Virus record (IMG/VR): IMGVR_UViG_3300002231_000826
Span: 18,075 to 41,136 of that record
DNA: 23,062 nucleotides
Reading direction: 5' to 3' (one strand)
DNA from: a virus
Shown: piece after piece, positions 1 to 11,807 of the stretch
Layout of the letters: each line of letters starts with the position of its first letter
How positions within the stretch are numbered: the stretch's first letter is position 1
Made by a program: the position numbers and the translations under genes
The notes under the pieces: generated by a model
Databases searched by the model: none
Seen by the model: the letters and a program-made list of their open reading frames with translations, nothing else
What the model was told of the DNA's origin: nothing

Positions 1-325
1 GCAGTTGGAGGATGTGATTCGTTCCACCCAGGAACCATAAGTCAAGATTCTCCTCCGTTTGAATTCCGCCGTTTTGTAAGTGAAGGCACCGTATCTTTAC
101 CTGTCCGGAATCGAATGGATTTATAAACGTTGCTCCATTGTCCTCGGAATAAAGAAGCTCTATCTCAGTCTGCTCTATATCAGCGCTTCCGCCGAATTTG
201 TTAATGTGCCAATTTTCTCCTGCTGGAATACTTATGTTCCGTGTCAATTGCCCCGGTGTTCCACCGCTTTGAGTTGGAACATCGTCTGCTTCAAAGAATT
301 TGTCAAGTGTGTTTCGTGTCCCCAT
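1..325 (-). CDS. Putative virion protein, 3' end cut by window
   Basis: An open frame begins at ATG 325 and stays open to base 1, giving 108 residues with no stop. It starts MGTRNTLDKFFEADDVP and ends in the window around LWFLGGTNHILQL. The start lies 2 bases after the stop of the gene at 328-981, with GGAGG in the last codons of that gene serving as ribosome site. The sequence alternates short hydrophobic and polar stretches and contains GENWHINKFGGSADIEQTEI, as in beta-rich phage surface or fibre-associated proteins. I do not recognise a family. The position at the end of a run of small virion proteins suggests another structural protein, which is inference. The gene is certainly truncated by the window. 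Confidence 0.8.
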   Translation of the reverse strand, partial: MGTRNTLDKFFEADDVPTQSGGTPGQLTRNISIPAGENWHINKFGGSADIEQTEIELLYSEDNGATFINPFDSGQVKIRCLHLQNGGIQTEENLDLWFLGGTNHILQL

Positions 326-327
326 AA

Positions 328-981
328 TTACCCCGCCTCCGCATGTTCATACCATTCTAATTTAAAGTCGATCCAATGAGTTCCCGCGCCAGATTTTGTA
401 AGACGAAATAAATAGTTTGTGTTTTGCGCAAGGATTATTTCATATTCAAGTTGTGATTGCCCACCAAAAGACCCCGCTGATCCTGTTTTGGATGAAAGAA
501 TGGATGTTCCAGTTGTCGTTACTGTCGGACCAAAGAAAGTTGTTCCCCCTGCCGTATTTGCAGTATTCCTATTGTTATCCACTTCGGCCAGGGCTACCCC
601 ATTTGCACTTACAGTAGTTCCTTCGTAAAGAACGATAACAAACTCATCCTCTGTTCGTATATGAAAAAACGCATGTGGCCAGCTCGTTGTATTTGGGACA
701 ATGATAAGAACATCAAAATTTGTTGCGGCCCCTGTTACATCGGTTTGCCCCTGAACGAAAAAGTGGTTTCCGTTATGGATCTCGTGATGCCTGTAGTCAA
801 TTGTCTCCATCGCCCTTGACGATCTGTCGATTCGAAGCGGTTGCCATAGAGCGTTGTCTTTGTCGTAGCCGTGAATCTTAACTTGGATCCGTCCGTCAGT
901 ATCAACAGTCAATGATTGATCATCGTTTGTCGGATCCGTTATCGTGAATTCACCCTTGTCTTTATTGTTTAGATCCGCCAT
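328..981 (-). CDS. Putative beta-rich virion protein
   Basis: A 217-residue protein starting MADLNNKDKGEFTI at an ATG preceded by GAGGAAAG. It overlaps the upstream gene (962-1261) by 20 bases. It is rich in Thr, Asn, Gly and aromatic residues in alternating patterns, with motifs such as DVLIIVPNTTSWPHAFFHIR near the middle and EYEIILAQNTNYLFRLTKS near the C-terminus. It has no cysteines, no signal peptide and no membrane segment. This composition fits a beta-sandwich structural protein such as a fibre-associated, decoration or head-fibre protein. The ending, LTKSGAGTHWIDFKLEWYEH, resembles a jelly-roll edge. The function is inferred from composition and neighbours only; I do not recognise a named family. 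Confidence 0.72.
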   Translation of the reverse strand: MADLNNKDKGEFTITDPTNDDQSLTVDTDGRIQVKIHGYDKDNALWQPLRIDRSSRAMETIDYRHHEIHNGNHFFVQGQTDVTGAATNFDVLIIVPNTTSWPHAFFHIRTEDEFVIVLYEGTTVSANGVALAEVDNNRNTANTAGGTTFFGPTVTTTGTSILSSKTGSAGSFGGQSQLEYEIILAQNTNYLFRLTKSGAGTHWIDFKLEWYEHAEAG

Positions 982-1261
982 TCTTTCCTCTCTTTTCCTT
1001 CTCCATTTTTTCCTCGTATGCCTTTAGCTTTTCCTCCGGAATCAACAGCTTGACGAACCCGGTCAGCGCAACAATGTTTTTGTTTAACATCTCCGCCATC
1101 AATATCTTGGTGCGATCCACGTTCCCGAATATAACCTGGTATTCGTTTGTCCTGTCTTGAGCGGGGATGGATTTCATCCTCACTGAATGCGTTCTCTCTG
1201 TGCCTTTGTTTTCTGTCGTTTCATTGGCGGGAGCATTCCCGTCCAGATTTAAATCTGCCAT
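962..1261 (-). CDS. Small hypothetical virion-region protein
   Basis: A 99-residue protein starting MADLNLDGNAPANETTENKG. The N-terminal 30 residues are polar and probably disordered. The middle (about 35-78) looks folded, with YQVIFGNVDRTKILMAEML and IVALTGFVKLLIPEEKL, and the C-terminus is a Lys/Glu-rich helix. Its ATG overlaps the homing endonuclease stop as TAATG, and its ribosome site GAGGAG is made of the last Glu codons of that endonuclease. It then overlaps the next gene by 20 bases. The first residues MADLN are shared with the downstream gene product. No family is recognised; it may be an assembly or tail-associated protein. Confidence 0.7.
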   Translation of the reverse strand: MADLNLDGNAPANETTENKGTERTHSVRMKSIPAQDRTNEYQVIFGNVDRTKILMAEMLNKNIVALTGFVKLLIPEEKLKAYEEKMEKEKRGKNGGSKQ

Positions 1262-1749
1262 TAGTTCTCCTCTATTTTGTTTAGTAATGCGAACTCGCCG
1301 TGATATTTTCTAGCGGCTTTATTGTATGCTTTTGCTGCGGATCTCGAATCGGGAAACTGACCGAGATGATGTTGTTTCCTTTCATACGTTATTGATGCAA
1401 CCCATGGATTTTTTTGTTTCCTATTCCCCCTGTAGAAAACACCCTTGTATGGTGACGTAGATTTTTTTGCCCACCCTATTCTGTTCGTTGAATTGTTTTT
1501 TTGAAAACACAATCTAAGGTTTGAAATGCTATTGTTTAACGGATTTCGATCAACATGATCGACGACGAGGTATTTTGGGTCTCCCATTATTTGCCTGTGC
1601 ATATAAAACGTCCTTTCTGATTTTTTCCCTCTATCCCTTCTAACGACATATCCATTCTGATCAACATACCAGTGGAACTTTATCAAGTGTCCATACTCAG
1701 AATCATCTACTACTGCTTTCTTCCCTTCATTTAATTCTAGCTCTTTCAT
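1261..1749 (-). CDS. HNH-AP2 homing endonuclease
   Basis: A 162-residue free-standing homing endonuclease. The HNH core sits at residues 50-80: the YMHRQIMG segment, then VVDHVDRNPLNN with Asp64-His65, then SNLR. This is the HNH_3 pattern that binds the metal and cuts DNA. Residues 99-157 (from SPYKGVFYRG to YHGEFALLN) form an AP2/ERF-type DNA-binding domain. The gene is AT-rich: by hand count 23 of 60 bases are G+C at both 1261-1320 and 1441-1500, against 32 of 60 at 2101-2160. That suggests recent acquisition. It sits between two virion genes with no intron in sight, and its stop overlaps the next start (TAATG). Its ribosome site GGGGAG, 6 bases before ATG, lies in a strong hairpin. Confidence 0.93.
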   Translation of the reverse strand: MKELELNEGKKAVVDDSEYGHLIKFHWYVDQNGYVVRRDRGKKSERTFYMHRQIMGDPKYLVVDHVDRNPLNNSISNLRLCFQKNNSTNRIGWAKKSTSPYKGVFYRGNRKQKNPWVASITYERKQHHLGQFPDSRSAAKAYNKAARKYHGEFALLNKIEEN

Positions 1750-1754
1750 TTCTT

Positions 1755-1786
1755 TCTCCCCAGGTGACTAAAGCCACCTGGGGAGA
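1755..1786 (-). promoter_or_regulatory. RBS-sequestering hairpin before HNH gene
   Basis: A perfect inverted repeat: 1755-1766 and 1775-1786 are complementary over 12 base pairs with an 8-base loop. On the minus strand the 3' arm reads CACCTGGGGAGA and contains the GGGGAG ribosome site of the homing endonuclease, 6 bases before its ATG. In a transcript carrying the whole element the site would be paired. There is no U-run after the stem on either strand, so it does not look like a terminator. It is the only long gap near this gene (71 bases between the upstream stop and the ATG). Confidence 0.82.
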
Positions 1787-1814
1787 TACTATGTTTACGA
1801 TTTGTTCAAGTCAA
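1786..1814 (-). promoter_or_regulatory. Putative sigma70-type promoter for HNH gene
   Basis: Reading the minus strand, TTGACT (1814-1809, five of six matches to the -35 consensus) and TAGTAT (1791-1786, four of six to the -10) are separated by exactly 17 bases. The predicted start is an A near 1779, inside the 5' arm of the hairpin at 1755-1786. RNA from this promoter would keep only about 5 pairs of the stem and leave the ribosome site free. It sits just after the stop of the 409-residue protein gene. The boxes are seen directly; activity is inferred. Confidence 0.55.
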
Positions 1815-1820
1815 CAATGG

Positions 1821-3050
1821 TTACACATCATTACCGATTATTGTACTGTACAAATCTTGAGCCTGTCCTTGCCTGTTGGTCCGGATCAGCCTGACTGTAC
1901 CTGTCGAAGTCACTGGGACCTCTTCCGGTGGATCAAAGAACAGTTGCAATGTCCCGCCTTCTTTGGGAACGAAGCCAACCGCGATTGTTGCCAACGAAGC
2001 CACTGGCCCTGTCTGAACCTCAACCTTGCTTCCGCCCGAAGTTGACATGATGATCGACTTCAAGAGAAACGTGGTATTGGCCACTGTGTAATCATGGTTG
2101 TCTGTTGCGTCGCCAGCAACGGCAGCAGCGGTATCATAATCATGAATCTCACTGGCCGAAACACCGGTCGTCACAACCTGGACATAGAGAGGAGTTAGCT
2201 CTGTGTTTGCATCCAGGACAGCATCCCTTGTCCATAGAGCGCCCGTAGAGCTTGTCCGGCCTCTTACATAATCTCCGTCAACCGGAGTCAGGGTTGTCAA
2301 TGTATCGTCCCGAAGGAACAGCGCGGCAATACCTGTGTCTGTTGCGCCTCCAGCGGAATCGACAGCCTTACCGAGATTGGTCGCTCCAACCCCAGGAATC
2401 ACCGAGGTTACATCAACGTCTCCGATGTCCGTCCCGGAGTTCGCAGCCAGAATTGCGCTTGCGCTTCCGTTGGAATCAATCGACAACCGTTGAGAGTCAG
2501 TGGTCGCATCAACCAGAACGTGAAGCTGTTTCCGGTCTAAAGTCATGCGGGGCGCACCAACATCTCCTTCATCCACGGAATCGGGAGTCGTTTCATCAGC
2601 GAGACATCCGATAACACCGATAGTTCCGGTTCCAACAACGAACGCGCTGTCGTCAGCAACGACGTTGGTTGGATCGCTTGTGGCACCTGTGTTCACCCAC
2701 AATGCTCCAGTGGAGTCCACCCGGAGTGCGACATAGTCTCCGTCTACTGGAGTCAGCGTAGTTAGCGCATCATCCCTGATTACGAGGGCTGCTACACCCG
2801 TATCGGTTGCACCCCCCGCCGTGTCAATTGCTTTACCTAAGTTTGTTGCCCCTGTCCCCGGAATGACGCTAGTCACATCAACATCACCAATGTCAGTCCC
2901 CGAGTTCGCCGCAAGAATAACGTTTAAATTATTACTCGCGTCTACATTGGCCTGTTCTGTTCCGTCAGTAATGGTTACAAATAAACCATTACTTACGGCA
3001 TTAGCGTCTCTATCCTTAGAGACAAGTGTTGGGAAGTTTCCGTCAGCCAT
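1821..3050 (-). CDS. Virion protein with duplicated 75-residue module
   Basis: A 409-residue protein starting MADGNFPTLVSKDRDANAVS, with an AGGAGGG ribosome site. A module of about 75 residues occurs twice, at residues 45-119 and 200-274. Both copies begin ILAANSGTDIGDVDVTSVIP and end STGALW; by eye 63 of 75 positions are identical. The DNA of the two copies differs at many third codon positions. The C-terminal part (about 300-409) contains a beta-rich domain with VANTTFLLKSIIMSTSGGSK and FDPPEEVPVTSTGTVRLIR, which looks like a receptor-type or trimer-type jelly roll. The Asp/Thr/Gly-rich composition, lack of cysteine pairs and position fit a fibre or baseplate-like surface protein. The exact role is not recognised. 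Confidence 0.78.
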   Translation of the reverse strand: MADGNFPTLVSKDRDANAVSNGLFVTITDGTEQANVDASNNLNVILAANSGTDIGDVDVTSVIPGTGATNLGKAIDTAGGATDTGVAALVIRDDALTTLTPVDGDYVALRVDSTGALWVNTGATSDPTNVVADDSAFVVGTGTIGVIGCLADETTPDSVDEGDVGAPRMTLDRKQLHVLVDATTDSQRLSIDSNGSASAILAANSGTDIGDVDVTSVIPGVGATNLGKAVDSAGGATDTGIAALFLRDDTLTTLTPVDGDYVRGRTSSTGALWTRDAVLDANTELTPLYVQVVTTGVSASEIHDYDTAAAVAGDATDNHDYTVANTTFLLKSIIMSTSGGSKVEVQTGPVASLATIAVGFVPKEGGTLQLFFDPPEEVPVTSTGTVRLIRTNRQGQAQDLYSTIIGNDV

Positions 3051-10844: not shown

Positions 10845-11807
10845 TTATGTTACGACAACCCCTCTCCAGGACCCGTTGTAGACCCATATCTTATTTGCCG
10901 ATGAATCGTAGACCATCGGGTATGATCCGGTAAAAGTCCCCGGATTCCCCGTTGGCGTTCCATTTGTGGCTCGAATCCAAAGGAAACCTGATGTCGCGGT
11001 TGTCGCCAATAATCCGCTACCATCACCAACAACTACATTCCCATTTGACGCTAGGCCAAGTATCGATGTCCCAACAACAGTCATGTTCATGTTCGCACCT
11101 GACCTGTAGATCCCGGTGTTCGTTGCACCTGAAAAAGAATGGGATGGCGCACTTACGGATCCGTCTGCTGCCCGAAGTGGTATCGTTGCAACAATCGCAG
11201 CCGTGGCAACATTCATCCGCAAAGTTCCGGTAGTCGCAAGCCCAATCTGATCTGCTCCGATACGGTAGATCCCAGTGTCCACATCGCTTTCAAACGAAAC
11301 GGAAGGGGCGCTCACAGTCCCATCGCCAAATCGACATTGGTTCCTAAGTAATGTTGCGGTCGATGCCATGTCTATCTTACTGACCCCTCCAACGACAAGC
11401 GCCCAACGATCAGCACTCACACGATAGGCACCGCAATCTAAATCAGCAGCAAAAGATACAGCAGGTGCGCCAACCGCTCCATCTGTAAAAAGAGCCTGCT
11501 GCGATGCATTAAATCGGACCGCTTCTGTTCCACCGGTGGTGACGCCAAGAATATCCGCACTCACCCAGTAGATGCCTGTGTTGGTATCCGAGGTAAAGCT
11601 GACCGATGGAACAGTGACACTCCCGTCATTCATGCGTAGAGTCGCCTTTCCTGTCATGAGACCCGCGCAAGAGAACGCATCCCAGTCTGCTGATGCGGCA
11701 TTCCTCGCATTGATATACGTCACTCCATCATTGAAGTTGGTCTGTACCTCCGATGCGTCTGCGGTCGTCCCGTTTGCAAGCGTGAAACTTAAAGATAAAT
11801 TCGCCAT
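10845..11807 (-). CDS. Tail fibre with four 50-residue repeats
   Basis: A 320-residue protein with AAGGAGG before its ATG. The N-terminus (FTLANGTTADASEVQTNFND) is of the type that attaches fibres to a phage tail. Four repeats follow, each opening D-G-x-V-x-x-P-x-x-S-F and then T/C-G-I/A-Y-R/W-x-x-A. They start at residues 61, 109, 162 and 215, spaced 48, 53 and 53. The pattern suggests a repeating beta shaft, probably trimeric. The C-terminal 50 residues (GSYPMVYDSSANKIWVYNGS, then WRGVVV) form a tip of the kind common in fibres. It lies directly after the nozzle gene. Host receptor recognition is inferred. Confidence 0.82.
   Translation of the reverse strand: MANLSLSFTLANGTTADASEVQTNFNDGVTYINARNAASADWDAFSCAGLMTGKATLRMNDGSVTVPSVSFTSDTNTGIYWVSADILGVTTGGTEAVRFNASQQALFTDGAVGAPAVSFAADLDCGAYRVSADRWALVVGGVSKIDMASTATLLRNQCRFGDGTVSAPSVSFESDVDTGIYRIGADQIGLATTGTLRMNVATAAIVATIPLRAADGSVSAPSHSFSGATNTGIYRSGANMNMTVVGTSILGLASNGNVVVGDGSGLLATTATSGFLWIRATNGTPTGNPGTFTGSYPMVYDSSANKIWVYNGSWRGVVVT

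What the first reader, a model, noticed from the sequence alone, without database searches (positions are those of the whole stretch)
1747..1820. I-TevI-like RNA switch in front of an HNH-AP2 homing endonuclease
Seen directly: a 12-bp perfect hairpin (1755-1786) whose 3' arm contains the GGGGAG ribosome site, 6 bases before the HNH ATG. Just upstream is TTGACT, 17 bases, TAGTAT (1814-1786), predicting a start at an A near 1779, inside the 5' arm. Known: in T4, I-TevI translation is blocked on long transcripts because a hairpin hides its ribosome site, and transcripts from a later promoter start inside the hairpin and free it. Inference: this phage uses the same logic for an unrelated nuclease family. 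Operon read-through would be translation-silent and the local promoter would give translatable mRNA, so the nuclease is kept off despite being carried in a highly expressed virion operon.
Basis: partly seen in the sequence, partly recalled or inferred. Interest (0 to 1): 0.85.

Follow-up and report, generated by a model that had tools for sequence, protein, structure and literature searches.

The report
Phage operon hairpin capping nuclease gene
In an uncultivated phage, a selfish DNA-cutting enzyme gene sits right behind a strong RNA hairpin that related phages carry without the enzyme, so its ribosome site lies inside the hairpin and the enzyme is probably made only in small amounts unless a short transcript escapes the hairpin.

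Summary
The minus strand has a 14-pair hairpin (12 perfect Watson-Crick) at 1786-1755. Its 3' arm contains the GGGGAG ribosome site of an intact HNH_3+AP2 gene (1749-1261). It is the longest stem in the 41-kb record, and none of 60 simulated windows had a perfect stem of 12 or more. Opening the site costs 17-19 kcal/mol on long transcripts and about 0 on transcripts starting at 1779 or later, so the I-TevI-like geometry is physically possible.

Two parts of the interpretation need correction. First, relatives without this HNH gene carry a strong hairpin in the same place, between the homologue of the upstream virion gene and the next gene. Several have similar feet (CTCC...GGGAG), and the next gene's ribosome site lies outside the stem. 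The hairpin is therefore most likely a resident operon element behind which a promoterless homing-endonuclease cassette landed. Second, the local promoter is weak: 9/12 match, counts at chance window-wide, about 2% at this spot, and no room for it in the closest relatives.

RBS-hiding hairpins on free-standing and HNH homing endonucleases are already known (mobE, segB, I-TevIII). I file this as a new variant of a known kind: translational attenuation likely, promoter switch unproven.

The parts
1821..3050 (-). upstream gene of the operon (409 aa; probable virion protein, no Pfam match); its stop codon is at 1823-1821
   Evidence: ORF; 74 IMG/VR loci encode relatives, 64 for its C-terminal part; none in cultured phages
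1786..1814 (-). sigma-70-like promoter match TTGACT-17-TAGTAT; would start transcription near 1777-1780
   Evidence: present, 9/12; not in excess over chance window-wide; about 2% by shuffling the spacer
1755..1786 (-). RNA hairpin UCUCCCCAGGUGGC-UUUA-GUCACCUGGGGAGA, 14 pairs, about -28 kcal/mol; probably a resident intergenic element of the virion operon
   Evidence: hairpins at the same place in relatives that lack this HNH gene
1756..1761 (-). GGGGAG, Shine-Dalgarno of the HNH gene, inside the 3' arm of the hairpin
   Evidence: sequence; fully paired on long transcripts, free on transcripts with a 5' end at 1779 or downstream of it
1261..1749 (-). HNH_3 + AP2 free-standing homing-endonuclease-like gene, 162 aa, intact; its stop codon overlaps the next start (TAATG)
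   Evidence: Pfam; alignment A1 keeps the D64-H65 and N73/N77 columns
962..1261 (-). next operon gene; its ribosome site (AGAGGAG) lies in the last codons of the HNH gene. Its relative directly follows the hairpin in L010; L009 has a similar start
   Evidence: 36% identity with L010; similar N-termini in L009 and L010

Best explanation
The hairpin is a resident RNA element of the virion operon, placed between the 1821-3050 gene and the 962-1261 gene. A promoterless HNH-AP2 homing-endonuclease cassette inserted directly behind it, and the purine-rich 3' foot of the hairpin (GGGGAG) now serves as the nuclease's Shine-Dalgarno. On operon read-through mRNA the site is locked in the stem, 34 nt behind the upstream stop codon and so out of reach of the terminating ribosome; nuclease translation is therefore strongly attenuated. 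Shown here: geometry, stability, rarity, and hairpins at the same place in relatives without this HNH gene. Inferred: that the window's hairpin descends from the resident one, that it represses translation in the cell, and the order of events. A short transcript starting inside the 5' arm would relieve the block, but the evidence for such a promoter is thin.
For: In 51 distinct relatives of the upstream gene, 14 have an uninterrupted stem of at least 10 bp with at least 4 G-C pairs within 80 nt of its stop codon. Three of these (L172, L217, L225) appear to lie inside the next reading frame, leaving 11. Other gene ends in the same loci: 9 of 395 (one-sided Fisher p 4e-9 for 14, 1e-6 for 11; indicative only, relatives are not independent). 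The hairpins include the nearest relatives (L166=L010, L167=L009), and the following genes there have free ribosome sites. L182, L192, L194 and L207 have the same kind of feet: CTCC or CTTCC in the 5' arm and GGGAG at the 3' foot; L192, L194 and L207 share CCTGGGGAG/CTCCCCAGG with the window, with the arms swapped. The HNH gene sits exactly between the hairpin and the ribosome site of the gene that follows the hairpin in relatives. SD opening cost is 17-19 kcal/mol on long RNAs, 0 for 5' ends at 1779 or downstream. In a -70..+20 frame it is 12.3: highest of 56 HNH-AP2 leaders and of the window's genes tested (next 7.3), while 1 of 144 other starts reached 12.
Against: No close relative with the same HNH gene in the same place was found (closest HNH about 40-46% identical, elsewhere), so descent of the hairpin from the resident one rests on position, size and partial motif, not on alignable sequence; the cassette could have brought its own hairpin. 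The window's hairpin starts 34 nt behind the stop, against about 6-17 nt in most relatives. Most of the 51 relatives do not meet the strict hairpin criterion. No expression data.
Confidence: 0.6

Rival explanations
1. Full I-TevI/mobE-type switch: the hairpin silences read-through mRNA and a dedicated promoter at 1814-1786 makes a short mRNA starting near 1779 that lacks half the 5' arm and is translated, timing nuclease synthesis.
For: A promoter-like site at the right place, and starts at 1779 or downstream free the ribosome site completely. The same arrangement is described for I-TevI, I-TevII, I-TevIII, segB and mobE (PMC2988022, PMC3014915).
Against: Promoter 9/12, not enriched over chance in the window, about 2% positional chance. 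In L166 and L167 the stem begins about 6 nt behind the stop, leaving no room for such a promoter between stop and stem. A start one or two bases earlier (1780-1781) already costs 3-5 kcal/mol to open. Which polymerase and sigma factor read this operon is unknown.
Confidence: 0.2
2. The hairpin came with the nuclease cassette as its own leader and replaced the resident intergenic sequence.
For: Exact overlap with the ribosome site, a longer spacer than in relatives, and known HEG leaders of this kind.
Against: None of the other HNH-AP2 leaders examined has a comparable upstream hairpin over the ribosome site; the broken paralogue in the same phage has only weak leader pairing; hairpins at this very intergenic position exist in relatives without this HNH gene.
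Confidence: 0.2
3. It is a transcription terminator or attenuator behind the upstream gene (either strand), and its effect on the HNH gene is incidental.
For: The scan lists the plus-strand reading as terminator-like; similar hairpins stand behind the upstream gene in relatives.
Against: On the coding strand no U-tract follows (AAAGAAAUG), and most of the relatives' hairpins also lack one; genes continue downstream in the same operon; terminator-like sites are not enriched over shuffles.
Confidence: 0.15

Closest known systems
mobE of Aeromonas phage Aeh1 (free-standing HNH homing endonuclease; PMC2988022, PMC3014915)
   Same: free-standing HNH endonuclease between phage genes, Shine-Dalgarno hidden in a stable hairpin on polycistronic mRNA
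   Different: mobE sits within a ribonucleotide reductase gene, in a T4-like phage with late promoters; here an HNH_3+AP2 enzyme in an uncultivated phage with a P22/SU10-like portal, and related phages without this gene carry a hairpin at the same place
I-TevI (T4 td intron, GIY-YIG)
   Same: ribosome site sequestered on long transcripts; a short transcript starting in the 5' part of the hairpin would free it
   Different: intron-encoded GIY-YIG enzyme with a known late promoter and an operator; here no intron, no shown promoter, no operator tested
segB of T4
   Same: free-standing endonuclease with a ribosome-site hairpin
   Different: GIY-YIG family; predicted T4 late promoter
seg43(25) of Aeromonas phage 25
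   Same: very stable hairpin directly in front of a homing-endonuclease gene
   Different: there the ribosome site lies just outside the stem; here it is inside. The relatives studied here have the 'outside' geometry, but for the ordinary next gene

Membership tests
RBS-sequestering homing-endonuclease leader (I-TevI/mobE/segB type) | Shine-Dalgarno of the endonuclease gene paired in a stable hairpin on long transcripts | tested here: met
RBS-sequestering homing-endonuclease leader (I-TevI/mobE/segB type) | a promoter whose transcript omits part of the 5' arm | tested here: inconclusive
   9/12 sigma-70 match at the right place; chance about 2% for this spacer; no window-wide excess
RBS-sequestering homing-endonuclease leader (I-TevI/mobE/segB type) | measured repression of translation and stage-dependent transcripts | not testable with these tools
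   needs infected cells and 5'-end mapping
RBS-sequestering homing-endonuclease leader (I-TevI/mobE/segB type) | hairpin belongs to the endonuclease cassette | tested here: inconclusive
   hairpins at the same position in relatives without this HNH gene argue against; no alignable sister locus found
HNH_3/AP2 homing endonuclease | HNH_3 catalytic motif and AP2 DNA-binding domain in an intact ORF | tested here: met
   PF13392 E 1.5e-7, above the gathering score; PF00847 E 1.6e-4, 22.4 bits, below its gathering score of 33.3; conserved columns in A1
HNH_3/AP2 homing endonuclease | DNA cleavage and homing activity | not testable with these tools
   biochemistry needed
intrinsic terminator | G+C-rich stem followed by a U-tract on the transcribed strand | tested here: not met
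   AAAGAAAUG follows on the minus strand

The most novel reading that the evidence does not exclude
The intergenic slot behind this virion gene carries a cis-acting RNA element kept as a structure rather than as a sequence in a large group of uncultivated phages (hairpins of changing sequence, and in a sister group an H-type pseudoknot-like fold with compensatory changes). A homing endonuclease has captured it as a ready-made translational lock, so the silencing of a selfish gene comes from the host virus's own operon architecture.
Probability: 0.35. Interest if true: 0.6.

Novelty: new variant of a known kind. Interest (0 to 1): 0.42.

Why it matters
If right, it shows how a promoterless homing endonuclease can be tamed at once on arrival: by landing behind a pre-existing RNA hairpin that supplies, and hides, its ribosome site. 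Parasite and host virus would then not need to evolve a dedicated switch. It also suggests that the intergenic slot behind this virion gene is an RNA element worth studying in its own right in a group of phages that has no cultured member in the collections searched.

Tried and rejected
Compensatory-change test of the hairpin in carriers of the same HNH gene: not possible, the closest HNH relatives are about 40-46% identical and sit elsewhere (genome contigs gave only two remote hits). Exact-pattern scan for the same stem: no hit in IMG/VR. Portal and capsid queries found no viral-contig relatives with exact peptide patterns; tblastn for the portal gave one cultured-collection record at 25% identity. 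DNA similarity to deposited phages: none. Terminator reading: no U-tract on the coding strand. 'HNH-AP2 genes in general hide their ribosome site': not supported; 5 of 56 leaders had an opening cost of 8 or more, against 5 of 144 other starts (I did not test the difference formally). TGA=Trp recoding, suggested by a TGA at a conserved Trp of the paralogue: not supported; the portal gene and others end in TGA next to the following gene and a normal tRNA-Trp(cca) is present. Rfam: no relevant match in the window (one sub-threshold chance hit far below its gathering score) or in 11 relatives.

Full report
What is there. The window is bases 18075-41136 of a 41,136-base IMG/VR virus record. The genes around the finding run on the minus strand. 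Between the 409-aa gene 1821-3050 and the 99-aa gene 962-1261 lies a 162-aa ORF (1261-1749) with an HNH_3 domain (E 1.5e-7) and an AP2 domain (E 1.6e-4, below Pfam's gathering score). In front of it the RNA can form UCUCCCCAGGUGGC-UUUA-GUCACCUGGGGAGA: 14 pairs, about -28 kcal/mol, with GGGGAG in the 3' arm 6 nt before the AUG. It is the longest perfect stem in the record, and no simulated window out of 60 had one of 12 bp or more.

How strongly the site is hidden. Forcing GGGGAG open costs 17-19 kcal/mol on transcripts that include the whole stem, 3-5 for starts at 1780-1781, and 0 for starts at 1779 or downstream. In a fixed -70..+20 frame the cost is 12.3. That is the highest of 56 HNH-AP2 leaders and of the window's genes tested (next 7.3); 1 of 144 other starts in related loci reached 12. 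The upstream stop codon ends 34 nt before the stem, too far for the terminating ribosome to melt it (inference from ribosome footprint size, own knowledge).

The promoter. TTGACT-17-TAGTAT is there, but 23 such sites in 20 kb match the 19.1 +/- 4.8 expected. Shuffling the 37-nt spacer gives an equally good, equally placed site about 2% of the time. That is suggestive at best, and post hoc. In L166 and L167, the closest relatives, the stem begins about 6 nt behind the stop, so a promoter of this kind has no room between stop and stem.

Relatives decide the origin of the hairpin. A search with the upstream gene gave 74 loci and one with its C-terminal alignment gave 64. In none of those whose downstream region I read does an HNH-AP2 gene follow directly. 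Yet in L009/L167, L010/L166, L011/L169, L012/L204, L014/L182, L015/L175, L027/L179, L192, L194, L207, L216, L221 and others a strong hairpin stands at this place, and the next gene's ribosome site lies outside it. In L010 the next gene is a relative of the window's 962-1261 gene (36%, E 1e-4), and L009's next gene starts similarly. By a strict criterion (uninterrupted stem of at least 10 bp, at least 4 G-C pairs, within 80 nt) 14 of 51 distinct relatives qualify, 11 if three that appear to lie in the next reading frame are left out, against 9 of 395 other gene ends in the same loci (one-sided Fisher p 4e-9 and 1e-6; indicative, because relatives are not independent). Stem sequences differ widely, but L182, L192, L194 and L207 share the foot pattern CTCC/CTTCC...GGGAG, and three of them share CCTGGGGAG/CTCCCCAGG with the window, arms swapped. 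The GGGGAG used by the HNH gene is thus the kind of foot this hairpin already has in phages without the gene.

Interpretation. The simplest account is that a promoterless HNH-AP2 cassette inserted between the resident hairpin and the ribosome site of the next gene, which now lies in the last codons of the HNH gene, and took the hairpin's 3' foot as its Shine-Dalgarno. Translation from operon mRNA should be low. Whether a short transcript relieves this is open. Because no sister locus with alignable intergenic sequence was found, I hold this at 0.6.

Known context. PMC2988022 and PMC3014915 describe ribosome-site hairpins for I-TevI, I-TevII, I-TevIII, segB and mobE, relieved by late promoters where mapped, and a non-sequestering hairpin before seg43(25). 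I-TevIII and mobE are HNH enzymes, so the use of this logic by HNH endonucleases is not new. New here would be the HNH_3+AP2 family, the phage group, and the evidence that the hairpin is a pre-existing operon element.

Side observation. In L170, L173, L174 and L177 the same intergenic slot holds an H-type pseudoknot-like arrangement with an inner hairpin: 96.8% of cells paired and four pairs with changes on both sides in only four sequences. It has no Rfam match at E 1 or better. L191 and L199 have candidate H-type pseudoknots there too. This supports the idea that the slot itself carries an RNA element, but four related sequences are few.

Noticed in passing
L170, L173, L174, L177 (about locus positions 2885-2985; IMG/VR relatives): H-type pseudoknot-like element (TGTGG, inner hairpin, GGGTTG, CCACA, A-rich loop, CAACCC) in the same intergenic slot; 4 pairs with changes on both sides, no Rfam match. 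L191 and L199 have candidate H-type pseudoknots there.
   Followed up: partly
L004:7497-7943 (minus; same virus record, outside the window): A second HNH-AP2 copy (38% identical), broken by an in-frame TGA at a conserved Trp position; the rest of the record reads by the standard bacterial code.
   Followed up: yes
L029:5724-6077: A different, HNH-like ORF starts directly at the stop codon of the upstream gene's homologue, so this slot seems to have received nuclease-like genes more than once.
   Followed up: partly
L082:1501, L098:1501, L097:1501 leaders: In some HNH-AP2 genes the ribosome site or start codon can pair with the first codons of the ORF (SD AGGTGTC with GATACCT; in L097 a 10-11 bp hairpin around the start).
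   Followed up: no
L004:1142-1612 and 133-1155 (minus): The large terminase appears split over two ORFs, with unresolved bases nearby; assembly error or a real break was not examined.
   Followed up: no
L004:9147-9219 and 11682-11755: The virus record carries tRNA-Trp(cca) and tRNA-Asn(gtt) genes.
   Followed up: no
window 1799-1823 and 1832-1856: A long imperfect inverted repeat (25 nt arms, 72%) spans the end of the upstream gene and the promoter-like region; possibly chance.
   Followed up: no
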